Source: Nodosilinea sp. FACHB-141
GTDB lineage: Bacteria > Cyanobacteriota > Cyanobacteriia > Phormidesmidales > Phormidesmidaceae
Reading direction: 5' to 3'
DNA: 64,000 nucleotides
Assembly (NCBI RefSeq): GCF_014696135.1
Contig: NZ_JACJPP010000002.1
Span: 62,001 to 126,000 of the forward strand
Position 1 is the stretch's first letter. Every line of letters starts with the position of its first letter. Below the pieces are notes generated by a model. It had not been told where the DNA came from. It did no database searches and was given only the letters and a program-made list of their open reading frames with translations. The translations under genes were made by a program, and so were the position numbers. Shown in pieces: positions 7,182 through 55,999 of the stretch.

Positions 7182-7190
7182 GTTTGTTTA

Positions 7191-7227
7191 GGGGTGGCTC
7201 GATGGCCTAAGGCCATCGAGCCACCCC
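7191..7227. repeat. perfect 17-bp palindrome GGGGTGGCTC.../...GAGCCACCCC
   Basis: A stem of 17 pairs with a TAA loop, 10 bases after the NIL gene. It lacks a T-run, though it could still end the cys transcript. The flanks (GTTTGTTTAGGGG and CCCCTAC) match those of the palindrome at 33045-33072, so it looks like one copy of a dispersed family. Confidence 0.7.
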
Positions 7228-7301
7228 TACCACTCACTGTCAGCTCAGCTGCCCACCCGGTTCAATTCTCCAATTCAAATACAAGTCAATCGAGATTGCG
7301 G

Positions 7302-11027: not shown

Positions 11028-11383
11028 GGTTTTACTCCTTAAAGATGGAATGTTCTAAGCGTTGAGATGTTGGTTGCCGAGAAAGCGATCGCCTAGGGCG
11101 TAGGATGCTGGGCTGACGAAAGTGAGGTAGCAAAGCCAAGGTTGCTGCTGGGGCCATTTTGCAGGCCCCAGACCCCCATCGACAAGGACGTTCCGTCGTC
11201 CTTGACCTCACGGAAAGGATTGGCTGGTCATCGGTTTAAACGCCTGTTCTGCCGATGGAGGTATCAAAGGAATCAAACTGTGGGGTTCCAAACCTGAATT
11301 GGACGGAAGGCTCCAAACTCTGACTAGATGAATGAAGAAGCAAGCGTCACCCATCCACCCCCTACCCATCCACTCCCCACCCC
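11028..11383. repeat. nrtC-nrtD gap with stacked hairpins and a C-rich octamer arm
   Basis: No gene is visible. GGGGCC/GGCCCC pair around 11153-11170, and CAAGGACG/CGTCCTTG around 11184-11206. At 11348-11386 there is a C-rich run of the octamer repeat (CACCCATC/CACTCCCC type) next to the nrtC stop codon. Confidence 0.55.
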
Positions 11384-19376: not shown

Positions 19377-19429
19377 GGAATAGGTGTCAGGTATTAGGTA
19401 CCGGATACAGGTAAAAAAACTACAACTGG

Positions 19430-19483
19430 CACCCATCCACTCCCAACTCTCCTACCCATCCACCCTCCCACCCATCCACCCCT
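19430..19483. repeat. C-rich octamer repeat immediately before the exbD start codon
   Basis: CACCCATC/CACTCCCA/...CACCCTCC/CACCCATC-type units run right up to the ATG at 19484, filling the place where the ribosome binding site should be. No matching G-rich arm is next to it. Confidence 0.75.
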
Positions 19484-22172: not shown

Positions 22173-22227
22173 ACCCACCCAACTACCCATCCACCCACCT
22201 ACTCATCCACCCCGTCACCCCGCCGCC
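22173..22227. repeat. C-rich octamer repeat immediately before the fecE-like start codon
   Basis: CACCCAACTACCCATCC / CACCCACCTACTCATCC units run to within one base of the ATG at 22228. The arrangement is the same as before exbD: a C-rich arm only, in the ribosome binding position. Confidence 0.75.
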
Positions 22228-29896: not shown

Positions 29897-31804
29897 TTAT
29901 GACTGAATACGCCCATTTTCTAAAAACAGAATTTGGCTGGCTCGATTGAGCACTGAAGGACGATGGGAGACGACGAGGCAGGTGGGGGGAAGGGGTGGAT
30001 GGGTGGATGGGGTAAATATCTGCTCCCACAGGCGCTGTTCGGTCTCCACATCGAGGGCGCTGGAGAGGTCATCGAATACCATCAGGGCAGGTTGGCGCAG
30101 CAGCATGCGGGCAGCGGCGGCCCGCTGTTTTTGCCCCCCAGAAAGGCGAAAGCCGCGCGTACCGATCAGGGTGTCGAGACCCTCGGGCATGGCGGCAAGG
30201 TCGCGATCGAAGACGGCGGTGGCGATCGCTCGGTCAAGCTGTTCTTGTCCCACGGTATCGCTAAGCCCCAGCAGCAGATTTTCCCGCAGTGAAGCACTGA
30301 AGAGCTGGGGAATTTGGGGTGTGTAGGCAGCCCGAGGCGGCACCAAAAAAGTCGCCGGGTCAAGAATCGGCTGACCGTTCCAATACAGCACACCAGACTG
30401 TCTGGGCAGAAGACCCAATAGCACCCGCAACAGTGTAGTTTTACCCGCCCCCACCCGTCCGGTAATCACCGTCAAACTGCCCTGGGTGAGAGTAAAACTG
30501 ATGTCGCTAATGCCGCCACCGCCCGGATAGCAGTAGGTCAACCCCTCGACGCGCAGCTCATTGAGGGGTTCGGATGCAATGGTCGTCACCATCGACGGTA
30601 GCGCAGGCCCTGAGCTAAGGATGGGTTTGAGGTAGAGGGGGTGAGGGTGGGTGAGGGGGTGAGGGGGTGGGAGGGTAGGCGGGTGGGTGGATGGGTAGAT
30701 GAGTGGATGGGTAGGCGGGAGGGTGGATGGTTGAGATTCGGTTATTTCATGGGTGCTGGTGTCGTCGACTTGCCCACGCTCCCACGCTCCCACCCGCCTA
30801 CTCTCCCACCCGCCTACTCTCTCACCCTCCCACGCTCCCACCAACTTCCCCATGCGCTCAAAGGAGACTTCGCTTTGCTTGATGGTGGCGATGAAGCCGC
30901 CGAGGAAGGCGAGAAAGTAGGTAACAAACGATAAGTAATAGACGAACAGGGCAAAGTCGCCGACGGTGAGGTCGCCTTGGGTGCCGAGGCTTTGAGAGGC
31001 GACTAGCAAAATTAGCCCGGTGCCGATGCTGACAATATTTTCAAAGCCGGAGTTGAGGATGGCGGTGAAGACTTGGTCGCGCACCATCAGATCGCGGCGG
31101 CGATCGCACCGTTCCTCTAATTCCTCCAGCATTTGGGCTTCAGCCCCGGCCACCTTCACCGCTTGCACGGCGGTGAACAATTCGCCAATTAGCCCGGTGA
31201 CCTGCTGGGTGGCTTGGCGGCTGGCGCGGCGGTAGCGTTTGAGGCGGTGCTCGGCCTGGTGGGCGAGAAGGGCGATCGCGCACAGCGGCAAAAACACCAG
31301 CAGCGTCATCGTCGGGTTGACGCTGATCAGCAGCGCCACCGACCCTACAGCAAACACCCCCGCGCCAAAAATCTCGTTGGTGCCCACCACCACATCCTCG
31401 ATCTGGGCTGCATCGTCGCGAAAGTAGCTGAGAATTTCGCCGGGGGAAGCGTTTTGGCCGTCGGCCCCGCCCGTGGCAAGTTCGGCTCCGGGCCGCTTGA
31501 GCAGTTCATGCAGCAGGTTGTGTCGCACCAGGCCACTGATCAAAAAGCGATGCTGGGTCTTGGTGATGCGCCCCACAAAAATGGCCACCACCCGCGCTAC
31601 CCCTACCGCCAGCAGCAGCCCAATCCACACCCAGGGCGACGCGCCAAAGCGAGACTCTCCGGTGAGGGTGTCAAAAAATTCGCGAATGATCAGCCCCGGC
31701 ACCGCTGGCAGACCCAGAATGAACAGCCATAGCAGCGTATCGACCCAGTAGAGCCGCTGGGCGTAGCGGATTAGCTGCCAGAGGAGGTGGGTGATAGGGG
31801 GCAT
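29897..31804 (-). CDS. ABC exporter (fused permease-ATPase) 1, with octamer-repeat insert in the linker
   Basis: Half-transporter of 635 residues. The transmembrane domain is at about 15-320 (start RYAQRLYWVDTLLWLFILGLPAVPGLIIREFFD). The ATPase domain is at about 415-635: Walker A ITGRVGAGKTTLLRVL, signature LSGGQKQRAAAARML, Walker B ALMVFDDLSSALDVET, switch VVSHR. Between them, about 325-400 is a low-complexity segment (GAWEGERVGGWESRRVG, then PSTLPPTHPLIYPSTHPPT). This is a translated octamer palindrome that keeps the frame open. A short second repeat (THPPLPPTCL) sits near the switch. Export of a siderophore or its product is suggested by the neighbours. Confidence 0.9.
   Translation of the reverse strand: MPPITHLLWQLIRYAQRLYWVDTLLWLFILGLPAVPGLIIREFFDTLTGESRFGASPWVWIGLLLAVGVARVVAIFVGRITKTQHRFLISGLVRHNLLHELLKRPGAELATGGADGQNASPGEILSYFRDDAAQIEDVVVGTNEIFGAGVFAVGSVALLISVNPTMTLLVFLPLCAIALLAHQAEHRLKRYRRASRQATQQVTGLIGELFTAVQAVKVAGAEAQMLEELEERCDRRRDLMVRDQVFTAILNSGFENIVSIGTGLILLVASQSLGTQGDLTVGDFALFVYYLSFVTYFLAFLGGFIATIKQSEVSFERMGKLVGAWEGERVGGWESRRVGAWERGQVDDTSTHEITESQPSTLPPTHPLIYPSTHPPTLPPPHPLTHPHPLYLKPILSSGPALPSMVTTIASEPLNELRVEGLTYCYPGGGGISDISFTLTQGSLTVITGRVGAGKTTLLRVLLGLLPRQSGVLYWNGQPILDPATFLVPPRAAYTPQIPQLFSASLRENLLLGLSDTVGQEQLDRAIATAVFDRDLAAMPEGLDTLIGTRGFRLSGGQKQRAAAARMLLRQPALMVFDDLSSALDVETEQRLWEQIFTPSTHPPLPPTCLVVSHRPSVLNRASQILFLENGRIQS
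30641..30842. repeat. octamer palindrome inside ABC exporter 1
   Basis: The G arm is at 30641-30732 (GGGTGGAT / GGGTAGAT / GAGTGGAT / GGGTAGGC units), a spacer of about 41 bases follows, and the C arm is at 30774-30842 (CCCACGCTCCCACCCGCCTACTC type). The arms are near-complementary. The insert lies in the linker between membrane and ATPase domains. Confidence 0.88.
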
Positions 31805-32310
31805 AGGGGTAGATGGGTGGATGGGAAGTATTTGGGGGAGATGGTAGGGAGAGAGTAGAGGGATGGCTGGGGGATTGGTTAGGAGTTATAGGGATTTGGA
31901 GGTTTATCAGGTGGCTTTTGCCGCAGCTATGGAGATTTTTGAGGTGTCTAAACGGTTTCCGGTTGAGGAAAGATATTCTTTGACGGACAAGATTCGAAGA
32001 TCGTCTCGATCAGTGTGTGCCAATTTGGGAGAAGCTTGGCGCAAGCGACGATATCAAGCTGCTTTTGTGGCAAAAATCAGCGACTGTCAGGCTGAAGCTA
32101 CAGAAACTCAAATTTGGTTAGAGTTTGCAGTCAAATGCCAATATTTAGATGCTGAAGTTGGCAGAGACCTCTATAGCAACTACGACCAAGTCTTAGGTCA
32201 ACTCGTCAACATGATCAAAAACGCTTCCAACTGGACAATCCAATAACCCATCCCCTCATCCACCCATCCACTCATCCACCCATCCACTCTCCCACCCCCC
32301 CACTCTCCTC
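31804..32310. mobile_element. S23 four-helix-bundle gene bracketed by octamer arms (candidate complete element)
   Basis: The G-rich arm at 31804-31862 (GGGTAGAT/GGGTGGAT/GGG... then GGGAGAGA) ends at the start codon of the S23 gene. The C-rich arm at 32247-32310 (CCTCATCC/ACCCATCC/ACTCATCC...) begins immediately after its stop codon. The order G arm, insert, C arm is the same as in the short palindromes, with a gene in place of the 8-85-base spacer. That this is the mobile parent of the short copies is inference. Confidence 0.55.
31863..32246 (+). CDS. four-helix-bundle protein, S23 (23S rRNA intervening sequence) family
   Basis: A 127-residue helical protein. The family pattern is SYRDLEVYQVAFAAAMEIFEVSKRFP, then ERYSLTDKIRRSSRSVCANLGEAWRKRRY and FVAKISDCQAEATETQIWLEFA. 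Members are encoded within 23S rRNA intervening sequences of Leptospira and relatives, and the fold is shared with the Avd accessory protein of diversity-generating retroelements. Here the gene fits exactly between the G-rich and C-rich arms of an octamer repeat, and its start lies in purine-rich repeat DNA that may supply the ribosome binding site. Its biochemical role is unknown, but members are basic and thought to bind nucleic acid. Confidence 0.9.
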   Translation: MAGGLVRSYRDLEVYQVAFAAAMEIFEVSKRFPVEERYSLTDKIRRSSRSVCANLGEAWRKRRYQAAFVAKISDCQAEATETQIWLEFAVKCQYLDAEVGRDLYSNYDQVLGQLVNMIKNASNWTIQ

Positions 32311-32433
32311 AGGAACCCCTGCCGGATTTTTTTGGCTGCTGAACGGAGTTTCTATAGAGGGCTGTGCTGGTTGATAGGATGATTGCAGATTGGCTTGTAG
32401 GCTAAACCTTGATTGTTGATGTTGCCCAGTGCC

Positions 32434-33027
32434 ATGGTTGCTTCGCCGCAGTATCTCACCCCCGAAGATTACCTTCAACTCGAAGCCGAAAGCCCCGTTA
32501 AGCACGAGTACTTCGACGGTCAAATCTATGCCATGTCGGGGGCTAGTGATGGGCATGTCACCATTGCGCTTAACCTAGCGGCGCTGCTCCGCAGTCATGT
32601 GCGTGGTACGGGTTGCCGGATCTATATGTCAGATATGAAGGCCCGCATTGAGGCTCGTAACCGCTTTTTTTACCCGGATGTGATGGTGACTTGTGACCCT
32701 CGCGATCGCGAGGTTGCGGGCTACAAACGCTTTCCTAAGTTGGTGGTGGAGGTGCTGTCTGAGTCTACGGAGGCTTTTGACCGGGGCGATAAGTTTGCGG
32801 ATCATCAAACTCTGGAGAGCTTAGAAGAATACGTGTTAATCAACACGCGCCATCAGCGGGTGGAGTGCTTTCGCCGCAACGAGGCGGGGCTGTGGGTGTT
32901 GCAGTATTACACGCCCGAAACGGCGACGTTTTGCCTGGAGAGCATTGATTTCACCGATACCATTGCGGCCTTATACGAAGATGTGACGCTGGAGCCGTCT
33001 GAAGAAATCTTTGATGCCAAATCCTGA
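32434..33027 (+). CDS. Uma2-family (PD-(D/E)XK-type) putative endonuclease
   Basis: DUF820/Uma2 protein of 197 residues, a restriction-endonuclease-like family expanded in cyanobacteria, with no proven cellular role. The start is taken at ATG 32434 (MVASPQYLTPEDYLQLEAES). An ATG at 32419 in frame is an alternative. Visible signatures are EYFDGQIYAMSGAS, the nuclease core FFYPDVMVTCDPRD (Asp of the PD motif) and KLVVEVLSESTEAFDRGDKF (E-x-L with following Lys). It lies downstream of the S23/octamer unit in the accessory region. Confidence 0.93.
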   Translation: MVASPQYLTPEDYLQLEAESPVKHEYFDGQIYAMSGASDGHVTIALNLAALLRSHVRGTGCRIYMSDMKARIEARNRFFYPDVMVTCDPRDREVAGYKRFPKLVVEVLSESTEAFDRGDKFADHQTLESLEEYVLINTRHQRVECFRRNEAGLWVLQYYTPETATFCLESIDFTDTIAALYEDVTLEPSEEIFDAKS

Positions 33028-33682: not shown

Positions 33683-33964
33683 GGGTGGCACCCTTAATAA
33701 GGTTAATAGGTTGGTGTTTTTGGAACGTAGCAGCAACAGGGCAAGATTTTCAGGGGTTGAGTGGTGCAGGGTGGGGCGGTCGCCATTGCACCGGGTAGAG
33801 CGTTGTTTCGCATAAGCTCATACTGCCCTTGGGGTTGAAACTCGCGCTAGGGCAGACAGTTTTGCGGCAAACATCGGTCAAATGGCGGAGCGCTATCGCA
33901 ATGCAGAAGGGCGCGCTTTAAGTTGACCCGCCGCATGGCTGTACTCTGGGCCTGCAATGCCGAA

Positions 33965-34175
33965 CTGCTGTGCCACATTAGCGATCTGCTGTGCCGCATT
34001 GGCGATCGCAGGGCGCAGATCGCTAAACTGCTGTGCCAGTTTCGTCAAACTGCTGTGCCACATTGGCGATCTGCGCCTTCAAATCACTAAACTGCTGTGC
34101 CACATTGATGATCTGCTGTGCCACATTGGCGATCGCATGATGCAATACGCTAAACAGCAGTGTCAGTTTGGCGAT
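33965..34175 (-). repeat. heptad-coding tandem repeat A (21/42-base units)
   Basis: Seven units start with CTGCTGTGCCACATT or variants, with lengths 21, 42, 22, 42, 21, 42 and 21. On the minus strand the 21-base period spells seven-residue units such as IANVAQQ and FSDLKAQ, a coiled-coil-like pattern. The single 22-base unit breaks the frame. A matching array is at 36359-36484. In both cases the array follows a copy of the same small minus-strand gene. The flanks 33683-33964 and 34176-34280 hold no gene I can support. Confidence 0.8.
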
Positions 34176-34280
34176 CGCAGGACGCAGATTGTCAGTAGGG
34201 GCGATAAGGTACCAGGTTCCTGTGCTCGTAACCTGGTTTGGGCAGCAGCAATAGGAACCCGGTATGTGTGACGAAGAGAC

Positions 34281-46327: not shown

Positions 46328-46540
46328 CAAGTGGGGGAGTGGATGAGTGGGCGGGTGGATGGGTGAGTGAATGGGTGAGTAGGTAGGTGGGTAGGCGAAG
46401 TGTGAGACGAGTAAAGGGTAGAAAAACAATCTCCCCACATTTATAAGCATGTAGGTGTGCAGTGCAGAGCATAAAGCGGAACCATCTACCCATCCACCCG
46501 CCTACCCACCCACCCCTCACGCCCTCCTCCCCCTCACATA
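46328..46540. repeat. octamer palindrome between receptor 2 and AraC 2
   Basis: The G arm is at 46328-46396 (GAGTGGATGAGTGGGCGGGTGG type), a spacer of about 86 bases follows, and the C arm is at 46483-46540 (CTACCCATCCACCCGCC type). The C arm runs into the last codons of the AraC gene, whose stop is at 46517. Confidence 0.82.
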
Positions 46541-50081: not shown

Positions 50082-52774
50082 CTAAAACGTTGTTCGATAA
50101 CTGAGACTCATCGTTCGGCCCTGACCCGCTCGATTGTCGCTGTCAAAGAAGGGGGCAAAGTACTGAGAATATACCGGGTAATACTGGGTGTTGAGCAGAT
50201 TTTGAATGCCCAACGTTAGCTCGCCATTTCTAAGGCGAACACCACTCAAGAGATCAAGGGTGATGTAGCTATTGATAGGAGCACTATCGGCACCGACGTT
50301 AAAGCCGCGATCGCGGTCACCAGAGAACAGCAGTTGCAACCGGTTTCGCCAGCCCGGCAGGGTTTCGTTTTCTACGTAGGCGGTGAGCTTAAACGGCGGA
50401 ATGATCAAACTATCAAGCGCTGTGAAATCCCCGTCTTCGTCAGCATCATCTGCACCCTCTAGCCATGCGGCGGTTCCTCCGAAGCTCCAGCGATCGCTGG
50501 GTTGCCAGTCAAGGGCACCTTCTATCCCATAGACTCGTTGGGGCGATCGCACCGTTTGCAGAGGACCACTATTCGATACGGCAAATCTTGTCCCCAGACT
50601 GGAATAGTTATAAAACGCGGCTACAGACGCCTGTACGGTGTTCCAGTTCCCCCGCAGGCCGATCTCGTAGTTATCGACCTTTTGGGGCTGCGTCAAATCA
50701 ATGTCAGACTCAACGGCAAAGCCGGGCGGGGCAAAGCCCAGCACTCGGCCAATATCCGGCAATGAAAAGCCTTGGGAAAAGCTAGCAAATGCCGTCAAGC
50801 TATCCACAACTTCGTAGGCTAAGCCCAGATTGAAAACTACGTCGTCCGCAGTCAGCGTGCCGCCCTCAACGCTATTGCCGTCATAGGTGGTGTAGTCGTC
50901 AGTATCAATATTGAGGTTGACATACCGTGCCCCGCCGCTCAGGGTGAGGCGATCGACAACATCCCACTGCAGCTGAGCAAAAATGCCCAGATCGTTCAAG
51001 CGGTAGGGAGGGACAAAATCAACCTCACCAATTTTGCGAAAAACCAGTCCGCCGCTGGCGTCAAACTCATCGGGGTCAAACAGGTTAAACCGCTGCGAAC
51101 TGTCTTCTCGCACATAATCGACCCCCCAAAGCAAGCTCAGGGTGTCTTCAGGATTAAACGACGTATTGACCTGAAGCCGCCCCCCCACTGCTGAGTGCTC
51201 CCAGGGGATTGGGAGATAATGCCAAAAAACTCCCGCAGATCGGTGGGCAGTCCGCCCACAAACTCATAGTTGCGGAAAAACACCTGCCCCGAAACCTCAC
51301 TGTTGAGCAAGTCATCATGGAAGTACTGGAGGGTGAGGTTCGTGGTTTCTAGAGAGGCCTCATTGGGGGCATCAATAATTTGAGTGCCTGCCGGTAGTTC
51401 AATAGCTCGGGCTTTCTGCACCCCCGCAATATTGTCTACCTCAGGGTCACTGATATAGGAGACGTTCTGAATTTGGCTGAAGTGGTTAAAGGTGAAATTC
51501 AACCGCTGCGTGGGGCTGAGTTCTCCCCCTAGCCGAATCAACAGGTTCACCTCGTCTGTCTCGGCGTCGGTTAGGTCGCTGGGGATGCGATCGCCCTCCG
51601 CGTCGTAATACACTCCACGCGAGGTGTAAGACAGACTGCCCAAGAGGCTGGCCGTCTCCGTCGCTGCTGATACTGAATAGAGCGCGTTATAGCCAAAGCC
51701 ATCCCCAGTCAGAAAGGCCTCGCTGAAGGCGGCACTGCCACCGATATCAATCGTTTGGCTCACGGGACTCGCATCCGGTTGCCGCGTGATGATGTTGATT
51801 GAACCCCCCGTGGCCTGCCCGCCATAGATCGCATTGGGGCCACGGACCACTTCAATCCGTTCAACCGAGCGCGGATCAATCGTGGTCAGCGCAGCGGGGA
51901 CAGAGCCCAGGTTGCTGTTTTGGGGAATGCCATCGATCAACACCGAAATTTCGCGTCCCCGCAGGGTTTGCCCAAAGGTATTGGTGCGGCTGGTGGGGGC
52001 ACTAAAGCCAGGGACGAGCTGAGACAAAATATCCCCCATGTCCTGGCTGAACCGGGTTTGTTGCTCAATGTCTTCCTGAGTAATCACCGTGACGGAGCGA
52101 GGAACATTTTGTAGTTCTTCTTCGGTTCGAGTCGCAGTGACCACAAGCTGAATGGCTTCCTCGGGCGCTTCCGCCTCGGTTGCCAACCCAAGGGTTACGG
52201 CCAGAGTTAAGCCCTGGGCAGCCGGGCTAACCTCTACACTGGGCGGGGCATCGTTACCAGTAATGGAAACTCGCACCTGATTGTCTGGCAAACCCGTGAC
52301 GCTGATAAAAGCAATACCCGCCGTTGAGCTAGCCTGCTGAAACTCGCCCCCATCAGGCAGAGCTAGCACCGCGTTAGGAATATCGATAATCAGGGCGTTA
52401 CCCAGCGATCGCGTGGCTGGTGCCGACAGCTCACCCGCCGCGGTTTCCAGCACCACCTGCAACCCTGCCTCGGTAGACTCTACCCGCACTCCCGTAATTT
52501 GCACCGTGGCCTGGGCGATCTGGGTCATCCCTTCGTCTACGGCGGCGGCAGGATCGAGGGTAGATGGGTGGATAAGTAGCGGGGTAGATAGGAGCGTGGG
52601 TTGTTCCAACTCATCCACCCGCCCACCCATCCACTCATCCACTTCCCCCACTCGCCCACTCGCCCACTCACCCACATTCCCACCGTTCGCCTGGGCCACC
52701 AGCGGTTGAGCCAGGGCCGCGATCGCCCCCATCACGCCAACCCACACGCTCCATCCCATCCGCTGCTGAGCCAT
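50082..52774 (-). pseudogene. AMIN-domain TonB-dependent receptor 3, interrupted by a one-base frameshift in a G7 tract
   Basis: Two overlapping frames form one receptor. The first (from ATG 52774 to 51137) has a signal peptide, a translated octamer palindrome (GEWASGRVGEVDEW...), an AMIN-type domain, the plug (VTATRTEEELQNVPRSVTVITQEDI, ERIEVVRGPNAIYGGQATGGSINIITRQ) and part of the barrel. The second (to 50082) completes the barrel to a terminal Phe (MSLSYRTTF). They meet at seven G on the minus strand (51180-51186). Eight would join QQWG to GRLQVNTSFNPEDTL in frame. This may be true inactivation, slippage-based phase variation or a sequencing error. Confidence 0.85.
52561..52682. repeat. 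octamer palindrome inside receptor 3
   Basis: The G arm is at 52561-52600 (GTAGATGGGTGGATAAGTAG), a short spacer follows, and the C arm is at 52612-52682 (CATCCACCCGCCCACCCATC type). It lies between the signal peptide and the AMIN domain and reads through in frame. Confidence 0.85.
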
Positions 52775-54079: not shown

Positions 54080-55999
54080 CTATATCGATCCAGCAACAGT
54101 TCCTAATCTGAGCAGCTGGGCAAAACGAGAGTTAGGGTCTTGGGCTAGGGTGATGCGATCGCCGTACTCCACCGCCTGCCCCTGCTCTAAAATTAAAATC
54201 TGGTCAGCCCGCTCCACGGTCTTGAGCCGGTGAGCGATGATAATCCCTGTGCGGTTCACCAACAGCCGATCCACCGCCCGCTCAATCAGCTGCTCCGTCA
54301 GCGGATCGAGCCGCGACGACGCCTCATCTAGCACCACCAGCCCCGGATCTTTGAGAAACACCCGCGCAAAGGCCAACAGCTGCGCCTGCCCCGCCGACAG
54401 CCCGCCGCTGTCGGCCCCCAGTTCTGTATCCAGCCCCTGCGGTAGTGCCTCCAGCCAGGGCATTAGGCCCAGATCTTCTAAGGTTTGCAGAATGGCGCGA
54501 TCGCCAATGTGCGCGTTAAAAAACGTCAGATTATTGCGCACTGAAGTCTGAAATAACTGCACATCCTGAGTCACGAACCCCACGTGGTGCGGCAACTCCC
54601 GCAGCGGCACCTGAGCGATATTCACCCCTCCCAGACAAATCTGCCCCCGCTGAATGTCGTACAGCCGCAGCAGCAACCGCGCCAGAGTGCTCTTGCCACT
54701 GCCCGTCTTGCCCAAGAGCCCTAGGGTTTGACCGGCGGGTAGGTGGAGGGTAAGGGATTGGAGGGTGGGCGGGTAGGTGGGTGGGTGGGTAAGCGAGTAG
54801 GTGGGTAGGCGGGTGGATGGGTAGATGGGTGGATGAGGTTTATCTGCTTTGTCGGTTTCGGTTGTTGATTCATCAATACTCCCACTTGCCCACCCATCCA
54901 CTCTCTCACCCATCCACTCTCCCACCCTTCCCCTCTCCCACTCGCCTACCTCTTCATACCCAAACCAAACCTCCTCAAGCTCCACCGATAGTGCACCAGT
55001 AGGTAAAACGCCTTGACCACCGGGGCTCACCTGAGTCTGGTGCCCCAATAAATCCTGAATGCGCTGGATGCTGGCTTGGGCTTGCTGGAGCTGTTCTAGT
55101 TCTTCGCGGATACGCTCAATGGGGTCTTGCAGCAGGGTGGCGTAGTAGAACAGCAGGTAAACGGTGCCGATGGTAATGGCGGATTGACTCCAGAGGTAGG
55201 CACCGACAGCCAGGGCGATCGCATTCCCTACAGTAAACAGCCCCACTGTGCTGCCCCACAGCAGAGTGCTGGTGAAGCGAGCCTGGTGAAAGGCCGCCAG
55301 CCACCGCCGCAGAATTTTGTAAAACCGATCCATCACATAGCCGACGGCCCCATTGGCGCGGATATCCTCAAGTCCGCTGAGATGCTCGGCCACAAAGCCA
55401 TAAAATTCGGCGCTGATCTGGCGGTAGGTGCCCCAGGGGCCCACGGCCAGGGTTTGCAGACTGCCCAACACGCCAAAAGCCACCAGGGCAAACAGGCTCA
55501 GGGTCACCCCGGCGCGCCAGTCTTCGCGCCACACCATAAATAAGACGCCGACTACCAGCAGGCCGTTGCCCACCACTTGCAACACAAACTGCGAGAAAAA
55601 CCGGGAGAGAGCATCCACATCACCATCGACCCGCTCCACTAGTTCGCCGGGGGTGTGGGCTTTGTGAAAAGCCAGGTCAAGGTCCATTGCGTGGCGGGCC
55701 AGATCAAGGCGTAGGGTATTCGTAGCCCGCCACGCAATGGTTTCGCTGAAGTAGGTAGTGGCGATCGCTAGCCCCTGCTGCAAAATTGCGATCGCCATAA
55801 ACGCCCCCGCCGCCAACACTAGCGATCGCTGCTGCCTACCCGCGATCGCAGTATCGATGAAGTAGCGCAAAATCTGGGGGTTTAGCAGCTGCAAGCCAAT
55901 CCCCCCCAGCAGGGCGATTGCCAACCCCCAAAACCGACCCCGCTGCGGTTTTAGATAAGTCGCCAAAATCGTTCGATACCCCTGTGCTGCTGCTCCCAT
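54080..55999 (-). CDS. ABC exporter (fused permease-ATPase) 2, with octamer-repeat insert in the linker
   Basis: 639 residues from ATG 55999. The transmembrane domain is at about 20-310 (RTILATYLKPQRGRFWGLAIALLGGIGLQLL). The ATPase domain is at about 420-639: Walker A LLGKTGSGKSTLARLLL, signature GLSAGQAQLLAFARVF, Walker B LVVLDEASSRLDPLTEQ, switch IIAHRLKTVE. The linker (about 350-415) is a translated octamer palindrome (GEWERGRVGEWMGERVDGW, then PPIYPSTRLPTYSLTHPPT), flanked by normal sequence (SVELEEVWFGYEE and LQSLTLHLPAGQTLG). It is similar in layout to ABC exporter 1 but not a recent duplicate. Siderophore-related export is inferred from context. Confidence 0.92.
   Translation of the reverse strand: MGAAAQGYRTILATYLKPQRGRFWGLAIALLGGIGLQLLNPQILRYFIDTAIAGRQQRSLVLAAGAFMAIAILQQGLAIATTYFSETIAWRATNTLRLDLARHAMDLDLAFHKAHTPGELVERVDGDVDALSRFFSQFVLQVVGNGLLVVGVLFMVWREDWRAGVTLSLFALVAFGVLGSLQTLAVGPWGTYRQISAEFYGFVAEHLSGLEDIRANGAVGYVMDRFYKILRRWLAAFHQARFTSTLLWGSTVGLFTVGNAIALAVGAYLWSQSAITIGTVYLLFYYATLLQDPIERIREELEQLQQAQASIQRIQDLLGHQTQVSPGGQGVLPTGALSVELEEVWFGYEEVGEWERGRVGEWMGERVDGWASGSIDESTTETDKADKPHPPIYPSTRLPTYSLTHPPTYPPTLQSLTLHLPAGQTLGLLGKTGSGKSTLARLLLRLYDIQRGQICLGGVNIAQVPLRELPHHVGFVTQDVQLFQTSVRNNLTFFNAHIGDRAILQTLEDLGLMPWLEALPQGLDTELGADSGGLSAGQAQLLAFARVFLKDPGLVVLDEASSRLDPLTEQLIERAVDRLLVNRTGIIIAHRLKTVERADQILILEQGQAVEYGDRITLAQDPNSRFAQLLRLGTVAGSI
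54737..54955. repeat. octamer palindrome inside ABC exporter 2
   Basis: The G arm is at 54737-54836 (GGGTAGGTGGGTGGGTGGG, GGATGGGTAGATGGGTGGAT), a spacer of about 41 bases follows, and the C arm is at 54878-54955 (CACCCATCCACTCTCTCACC). It is the longest copy in the window. Confidence 0.88.

What the first reader, a model, noticed from the sequence alone, without database searches (positions are those of the whole stretch)
31804..32310. S23 four-helix-bundle gene exactly bracketed by the two arms of an octamer palindrome
Seen: a G-rich octamer arm ends at the start codon (31863) and a C-rich octamer arm begins at the base after the stop codon (32247). All other paired copies of this repeat have the same order (G arm, short spacer, C arm) with only 8-86 bases between. 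Known: S23-family proteins are encoded inside 23S rRNA intervening sequences, which are also bounded by pairing ends, and the fold is shared with the Avd protein of diversity-generating retroelements. Inference: this is the gene-bearing parent of a hairpin element, and the short copies are its non-autonomous derivatives. I know of no description of such a pairing, but the literature could not be searched.
Basis: partly seen in the sequence, partly recalled or inferred. Interest (0 to 1): 0.82.

Follow-up and report, generated by a model that had tools for sequence, protein, structure and literature searches.

The report
Repeat-bounded mobile S23 gene
A small gene long known only as a curiosity inside ribosomal RNA genes turns out, across many bacterial phyla, to travel between two matching blocks of 7- or 8-base repeats, sometimes right inside other genes that it leaves readable, so it looks like a widespread, overlooked mobile element.

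Summary
The gene is real: 127 aa, PF05635/TIGR02436. It lies between a G-rich octamer arm (31805-31828, ending 34 nt before the ATG, not at it) and a C-rich arm that starts right after the stop (32247). This is not chance.

The genome's only other S23 gene has the same kind of arms. Across cyanobacteria, 40/73 S23 loci have complementary flanks against 0/30 Uma2 genes, and 16/30 class-wide against 3/305 random genes. Across 17 named phyla it is 55/80 against 6/290 neighbouring genes. Arms are almost always 7- or 8-nt tandem repeats. Their sequence differs between loci, matches across the gene and follows S23 lineage.

Related plasmids show the site empty, once with a gene-less hairpin sharing the S23 version's left junction. 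About 20 S23 elements lie inside host genes, mostly DNA methylases where identified. The host frame always runs through S23 in the +2 frame without a stop, while S23 stays under purifying selection.

Best reading: S23 is the gene of a mobile, repeat-bounded hairpin element, and 23S rRNA intervening sequences are its rRNA-inserted form. How it moves is not shown.

The parts
31863..32246 (+). S23 / 23S_rRNA_IVP four-helix-bundle gene, 127 aa
   Evidence: PF05635 94 bits, TIGR02436 86 bits; dN/dS 0.05-0.08 against orthologues
31805..31828 (.). 5' arm: G-rich octamer repeat (GGGGTAGATGGGTGGATGGG...)
   Evidence: arm complementary to 32279-32298
31829..31862 (+). 5' leader between arm and start codon (GGGAAGTATTTGG..., variant of GGGAATTATTTGG in orthologues)
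32247..32308 (.). 3' arm: C-rich octamer repeat starting at the base after the stop codon
   Evidence: RNA of 31780-32320 folds closed by the arms, z = -3.9
29897..31804 (-). ABC transporter, divergent neighbour; its ATG (31804) abuts the 5' arm; orthologous site A in relatives
32434..33027 (+). Uma2-family gene downstream
   Evidence: PF05685
14648..14722 (.). gene-less octamer hairpin
30630..30846 (.). gene-less octamer hairpin inserted in frame in the ABC transporter gene
46335..46517 (.). gene-less octamer hairpin, loop 123 nt
52556..52638 (.). gene-less octamer hairpin
54764..54950 (.). gene-less octamer hairpin
11347..11377 (.). octamer arm without a clear partner
19429..19483 (.). C-octamer arm next to a different (heptamer-like GGTATTA) repeat
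22175..22206 (.). C-octamer arm next to GGTGCAA-type repeats
29991..30014 (.). single octamer arm read in frame in the ABC transporter gene

Best explanation
The S23 gene and its two complementary short-tandem-repeat arms form one mobile unit of about 450-550 bp: 5' arm, short leader, S23 ORF, 3' arm. Units insert between the stop of one gene and the start of the next, or into a permissive loop of a host protein. In that case they lie in the phase that lets the host frame run through S23 in the +2 frame, so the host protein gains about 150-200 hydrophilic residues while S23 is encoded in its own frame. Each S23 lineage has its own repeat family, and gene-less hairpins of that family are probably derivatives. 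The 23S rRNA intervening sequences are the same kind of unit in rRNA. Shown: unit structure, specificity, lineage-repeat correspondence, presence/absence, open read-through frames, selection on S23. Inferred: an S23 oligomer binds the repeat hairpin (ssDNA or RNA) and promotes its copying or strand transfer into new sites with host replication/repair enzymes, possibly a reverse transcriptase. Target bases are replaced and no target duplication is seen.
For: (a) Specificity: complementary flanks in 40/73 S23 v 0/30 Uma2, 16/30 v 3/305 random genes, 55/80 v 6/290 neighbour genes, p=2e-30. (b) Best arm period 7, 14 or 8 in 134 of 141. (c) Arms follow S23 lineage: tree clades share a repeat family across cyanobacterial families; Mantel r=0.38 on 23 collapsed sites, 0/5000 permutations. 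(d) Arms belong to the unit: in G024 and G037 the only (GGGAGTC)3 copies in the genome flank S23; L033 and L036 are 86.5% identical over 459 bp from 40 nt before S23 to 45 nt past its stop, at two different host positions. (e) Empty sites: in Calothrix plasmids the unit sits between TAA and ATG where about 90%-identical relatives have 3 nt; in Nostoc C052 it replaces 42 nt present in Nostoc C057 (95.7% identity). (f) Read-through: 10 intragenic cyanobacterial copies have 0 stops in +2 v mean 6.65 in the others; 11 of 80 genome-contig loci likewise, none in +1. (g) dN/dS of S23 0.05-0.22. (h) Published Coxiella IVS has an S23 ORF, 28-bp terminal inverted repeat and tandem GACAGAT heptamers (PMC4990558).
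Against: No transposition event was observed and S23 has no known catalytic motif, so the mover could be another enzyme. A quarter to a third of loci lack detectable arms, notably tandem S23 pairs beside cas2 and a reverse transcriptase. Several genomes with S23 elements have no PF00078 reverse transcriptase (G012, G021, G028, G016, G136), which weakens a retro-mechanism. Some gene-less hairpins occur in S23-less genomes (G009). Loci are phylogenetically related, so p-values overstate independence. The read-through host proteins have not been shown to be made.
Confidence: 0.74

Rival explanations
1. Passenger model: the tandem-repeat hairpin is the real mobile or self-amplifying unit (replication slippage, template switching, gene conversion), and S23 is a cargo gene that rides in hairpin loops without acting on them.
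For: Gene-less hairpins are far more numerous than S23 copies (window: 2 S23 in the genome v 29 exact 16-mer octamer sites). Arms at one site are exchanged for other repeat families without S23.
Against: Correspondence of S23 lineage and repeat family across cyanobacterial families. Strong purifying selection on S23. No other gene type was found so bracketed: 3/305 random genes scored 20 or more. In G024 and G037 the repeats occur only at S23.
Confidence: 0.15
2. Host-function model: S23 is a domesticated small RNA- or DNA-binding protein, and the arms are its regulatory signals (mRNA stability, attenuation, G-quadruplex), not ends of a mobile unit.
For: dN/dS 0.05-0.22. The RNA of the locus is strongly folded (z -3.9). 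Long vertical persistence at site A. Tandem S23 pairs without arms near cas2/RT look domesticated.
Against: Patchy presence (136 of 291 genomes), empty sites in close relatives, insertion inside host ORFs, arm sequence unconserved except for matching its partner.
Confidence: 0.08
3. Chance: a repeat-rich genome happens to have hairpin arms on both sides of this gene.
For: About ten octamer sites in 64 kb.
Against: Both S23 genes of the genome are bracketed; strong enrichment over three control sets; the same pattern in unrelated phyla with different repeats.
Confidence: 0.03

Closest known systems
23S rRNA intervening sequences (IVS), e.g. Coxiella burnetii IVS with S23p ORF (PMC4990558)
   Same: S23 ORF of the same Pfam family, complementary termini, about 430 nt; tandem 7-nt repeats upstream of the ORF are reported for Coxiella
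   Different: Described in rRNA genes and excised there by RNase III; here in intergenic and protein-coding sites, with gene-less derivatives and, in some, a read-through host frame. The Coxiella S23p is reported as probably not synthesised; here S23 is under purifying selection
Cyanobacterial STRR / heptameric repeats (e.g. GGGAATC in Nostoc and Xanthomonas, PMC4692102; TAACTGA, PMC4679880)
   Same: Short tandem repeats, mostly intergenic; in Xanthomonas 70-75 cases of two repeat sites in convergent orientation forming inverted repeats
   Different: No gene or mover was linked to them in those papers; the present data tie such repeats to S23 genes
REPIN / RAYT systems
   Same: A protein lineage with cognate palindromic repeats and many non-autonomous copies (from general knowledge)
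   Different: RAYT is a Y1 HUH transposase; S23 is an all-helical small protein without that signature; repeats are tandem heptamers
MITEs and Rickettsia palindromic elements (PMC10969869)
   Same: Small palindromic elements, in-frame insertion into genes
   Different: The described elements are gene-less; here a separate gene is encoded in another frame of the insert; no target-site duplication seen
Avd of diversity-generating retroelements
   Same: Fold relative; weak profile match (NF033474 E=5e-4, bAvd E=4e-4)
   Different: Far below the curated cut-offs (20.4 v 80; 21.2 v 40); no retroelement at the locus

Membership tests
PF05635 / TIGR02436 (S23, four helix bundle) | profile score above curated cut-off | tested here: met
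   94.2 v 33.8 bits; 86.2 v 24 bits; PDB relatives 2RLD and 2GSC
23S rRNA intervening sequence | located within the 23S rRNA gene | tested here: not met
   Between ABC transporter and Uma2 genes; no Rfam match in the window
23S rRNA intervening sequence | complementary termini enclosing an S23 ORF | tested here: met
23S rRNA intervening sequence | excision by RNase III | not testable with these tools
   needs RNA work
DGR accessory protein Avd | NF033474 score above cut-off and adjacent DGR reverse transcriptase/template repeat | tested here: not met
   20.4 v 80 bits; G000 has 3 PF00078 matches, none near the locus
IS/MITE with DDE or HUH transposase | terminal inverted repeats | tested here: met
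   arms; but made of tandem repeats
IS/MITE with DDE or HUH transposase | target-site duplication | tested here: not met
   none at the two plasmid insertion sites with clean empty relatives; 3 and 42 nt of target replaced
IS/MITE with DDE or HUH transposase | encoded transposase | tested here: not met
   the only ORF between the arms is S23
STRR-type tandem repeats | tandem 7-8 nt units, dispersed in many copies | tested here: met

The most novel reading that the evidence does not exclude
S23 genes define a previously unrecognised class of mobile element, present in bacteria and at least one archaeal contig, whose ends are hairpins of tandem heptamers and whose single gene belongs to a small all-helical nucleic-acid-binding-type fold with no known catalytic motif. 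Some lineages are overprinting elements that insert into coding genes and stay readable in a second frame. They would be the source of the long-unexplained heptamer repeats of cyanobacteria, xanthomonads and others, and of 23S rRNA intervening sequences.
Probability: 0.55. Interest if true: 0.95.

Novelty: new variant of a known kind. Interest (0 to 1): 0.87.

Why it matters
Two old puzzles, what S23/IVS genes are for and where the short tandemly repeated sequences of cyanobacteria and other bacteria come from, would have one answer that can be tested with a purified 14-kDa protein and a synthetic repeat hairpin. If S23 moves its unit, it is a mover without a known catalytic domain. The read-through copies show a gene that enters another gene, leaves it readable in a second frame and keeps its own reading frame under selection; they also add flexible linkers to DNA methylases. 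Annotation pipelines call these genes 'S23 ribosomal protein' or 'four helix bundle protein' and do not report the unit.

Tried and rejected
Chance association: rejected by three control sets. Diversity-generating retroelement: profile below cut-off and no RT nearby. Obligatory RT dependence: not supported, five S23-positive genomes have no PF00078 match. Structured RNA of a known family: none in the window. tRNA target: none. Conserved GGGAATTATTTGG leader motif: found mainly in the window's own lineage, not general. Phage vehicle: no match among 50,697 phage records and only 4 IMG/VR contigs. Site A own-partner test: significant overall (p=1e-4) but the own partner is best in only 3 of 12 rows, because most share the octamer family, so it is weak evidence. 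First genome-contig scan with a seven-sequence alignment failed. Calothrix NIES-22 plasmid pair: the flanks are homologous too, so it is not a transposition pair. Literature: ten searches of the open PMC set found no paper linking S23 genes to flanking tandem repeats outside rRNA; paywalled work and preprints could not be searched.

Full report
What was checked. The window is G000:C2:62001-126000 of a 5.9-Mb cyanobacterial genome. The ORF 31863-32246 scores 94 bits with PF05635 and 86 bits with TIGR02436. The C-rich arm starts at the base after the stop. The G-rich octamers end near 31828, 34 nt before the ATG. The arms are 80% complementary over 20 nt, and the RNA of 31780-32320 folds with the arms closing the gene, z = -3.9 against shuffles. 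Octamer-type sites in the window: 41 against 0.84 expected.

The second copy. The genome has only one more PF05635 gene. It lies between a thiolase and an acyl-CoA dehydrogenase gene and also sits in octamer arms of a related sequence.

Statistics. For each S23 gene I aligned 250 nt upstream with the reverse complement of 250 nt downstream. In relatives, 40 of 73 scored 20 or more; median 22, against 11 for flanks of different loci and for shuffled flanks. None of 30 Uma2 genes reached 20. Class-wide across cyanobacteria: 16 of 30, against 3 of 305 random genes from 400 kb of two relatives. A scan of GTDB species genomes gave 80 loci in 17 named phyla plus unassigned, including one archaeal contig: 55 of 80 reached 20, against 6 of 290 neighbouring genes in the same loci, p = 2e-30. 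The loci are related to each other and were chosen by similarity to one S23 lineage, so the p-values are nominal.

What the arms are. Among 141 armed loci the best repeat period was 7 in 80, 14 in 28 and 8 in 26; shuffled arms gave no preferred period. The sequence differs between loci: GGATGGGT, GGGAGTC, GGTGTAG, AGTGGATA, TTAGCTG, AACGTT-type, AGTTTTG, TAGGCAG, GTGAATG and more. It is shared by the two sides of a gene and by S23 lineages. On a tree of 96 S23 proteins, clades share a repeat family across cyanobacterial families. After collapsing to 23 independent sites, S23 identity and arm 6-mer similarity correlate (Mantel r = 0.38, 0 of 5000 permutations).

The arms travel with the gene. 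In G024 and G037 the only copies of (GGGAGTC)3 in the whole genome are those at the S23 gene. L033 and L036 share 86.5% identity over 459 bp, from 40 nt before the S23 domain to 45 nt past the stop, at two different positions in host genes. Of 17 genomes with (GGGAGTC)3, 15 carry S23, against 121 of 274 without it (p = 6e-4). In the window's genus the octamer is commoner in genomes with the window-lineage S23 (median 39 v 8, p = 0.002). One S23-less genome, G009, still has 21.

Empty sites. Site A (ABC transporter start): several relatives have the S23 unit; others have gene-less hairpins of quite different repeats at the same place, G017 and G013 (GGGGTGAT type), G014 (AGTTTTG), G003 (L127). 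Site B (thiolase/acyl-CoA dehydrogenase): S23 in G000, G001, G010 and G021; AGTTTTG hairpin without gene in G009 and G019. Plasmids give clean cases. In Calothrix brevissima NIES-22 the unit lies between the TAA of an integrase gene and the ATG of the next gene; Tolypothrix, Nostoc carneum and Aulosira plasmids (about 90% identity) have three bases there. In Nostoc C052 the unit replaces 42 nt present in Nostoc C057 (95.7% identity). Nostoc ATCC 53789 has a gene-less GGGAAC hairpin at that site with the same left junction as the S23 version. No target-site duplication was seen.

Read-through copies. In ten cyanobacterial loci the unit lies inside a host ORF, and the host frame runs through S23 in the +2 frame with no stop. 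The other 85 S23 genes average 6.65 stops in that frame; the only other zero, L172, is also intragenic but its host frame is broken. Synonymous-codon shuffles predict 2.7 stops in the ten. Where identified from the flanking sequence, the hosts look like DNA methylases of several types. In one, uninterrupted relatives have an 11-residue loop (FGEPDI-DIDEVEDGQIQ-VKIHGID) that the unit replaces. Eleven more read-through copies lie in Chloroflexota, Planctomycetota, Armatimonadota, Myxococcota, Fibrobacterota and others; none uses the +1 frame. One of them, L231, is the same genome as L036, so about 20 are distinct. The state needs 3-4 changes on the S23 tree. S23 itself is under purifying selection in intergenic and read-through copies alike (dN/dS 0.05-0.22), while the +2 frame shows no amino-acid constraint beyond being open.

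Mechanism. Shown: a unit with defined ends, presence/absence, matching arms, a conserved protein. Inferred: an S23 oligomer (solved relatives 2GSC and 2RLD hold five chains) recognises its repeat hairpin and promotes copying or strand transfer into new sites. A reverse transcriptase in trans is possible by analogy with Avd but not required: G012, G021, G028, G016 and G136 have S23 and no PF00078 match. Insertion seems to replace target bases, which fits template switching or annealing better than cut-and-paste.

Comparison with the known. The Coxiella IVS, in 23S rRNA helix 45, has an S23 ORF, a 28-bp terminal inverted repeat and tandem GACAGAT heptamers before the ORF (PMC4990558), the same anatomy as here. 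IVS mobility was proposed by earlier authors cited there. Heptamer repeats are described in Nostoc, Xanthomonas, Microcystis and Beggiatoaceae without a gene linked to them (PMC4692102, PMC4679880). No paper in the open library links the two outside rRNA.

Verdict.

Noticed in passing
L069, L070, L072, L073 (G013, G027, G034, G001): Tandem pairs of S23 genes, mostly without matching arms, lie beside cas2 and near a reverse transcriptase; they look domesticated, with an Avd-like partnership possible.
   Followed up: partly
L253, L258, L296, L288: In Rhizobiales the S23 unit sits between what appear to be nuoC and nuoD, with GGCAATA repeats in some and GTGAATG in another; the same junction seems to be hit with different repeat families.
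   Followed up: no
L066, L071, L154, L155, L162, L174: S23 units lie between cas genes (apparently cas6-cas4, cas1-cas2) in several cyanobacteria.
   Followed up: no
window 30630-30846 and 29991-30014: The ABC transporter gene carries a gene-less octamer hairpin and a single octamer arm in frame, adding low-complexity residues.
   Followed up: partly
L126 / L074 (G004): The site-A S23 gene is interrupted by a further palindromic insert of about 150 bp.
   Followed up: no
L161, L167: The DUF1156-like methylase hosts carry further gene-less hairpin insertions, read in frame, at other loops.
   Followed up: no
window 33957-34271: Tandem imperfect repeats (ATTGGCGATC...) readable as repeated LLCHIGD peptides.
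   Followed up: no
G027:C2:3253337-3256062: Array of reverse-transcriptase fragments at a regular 350-bp spacing, either a tandem duplication or an assembly artefact.
   Followed up: no
window 7189-7229: Perfect 20-bp inverted repeat with a 1-nt loop.
   Followed up: no
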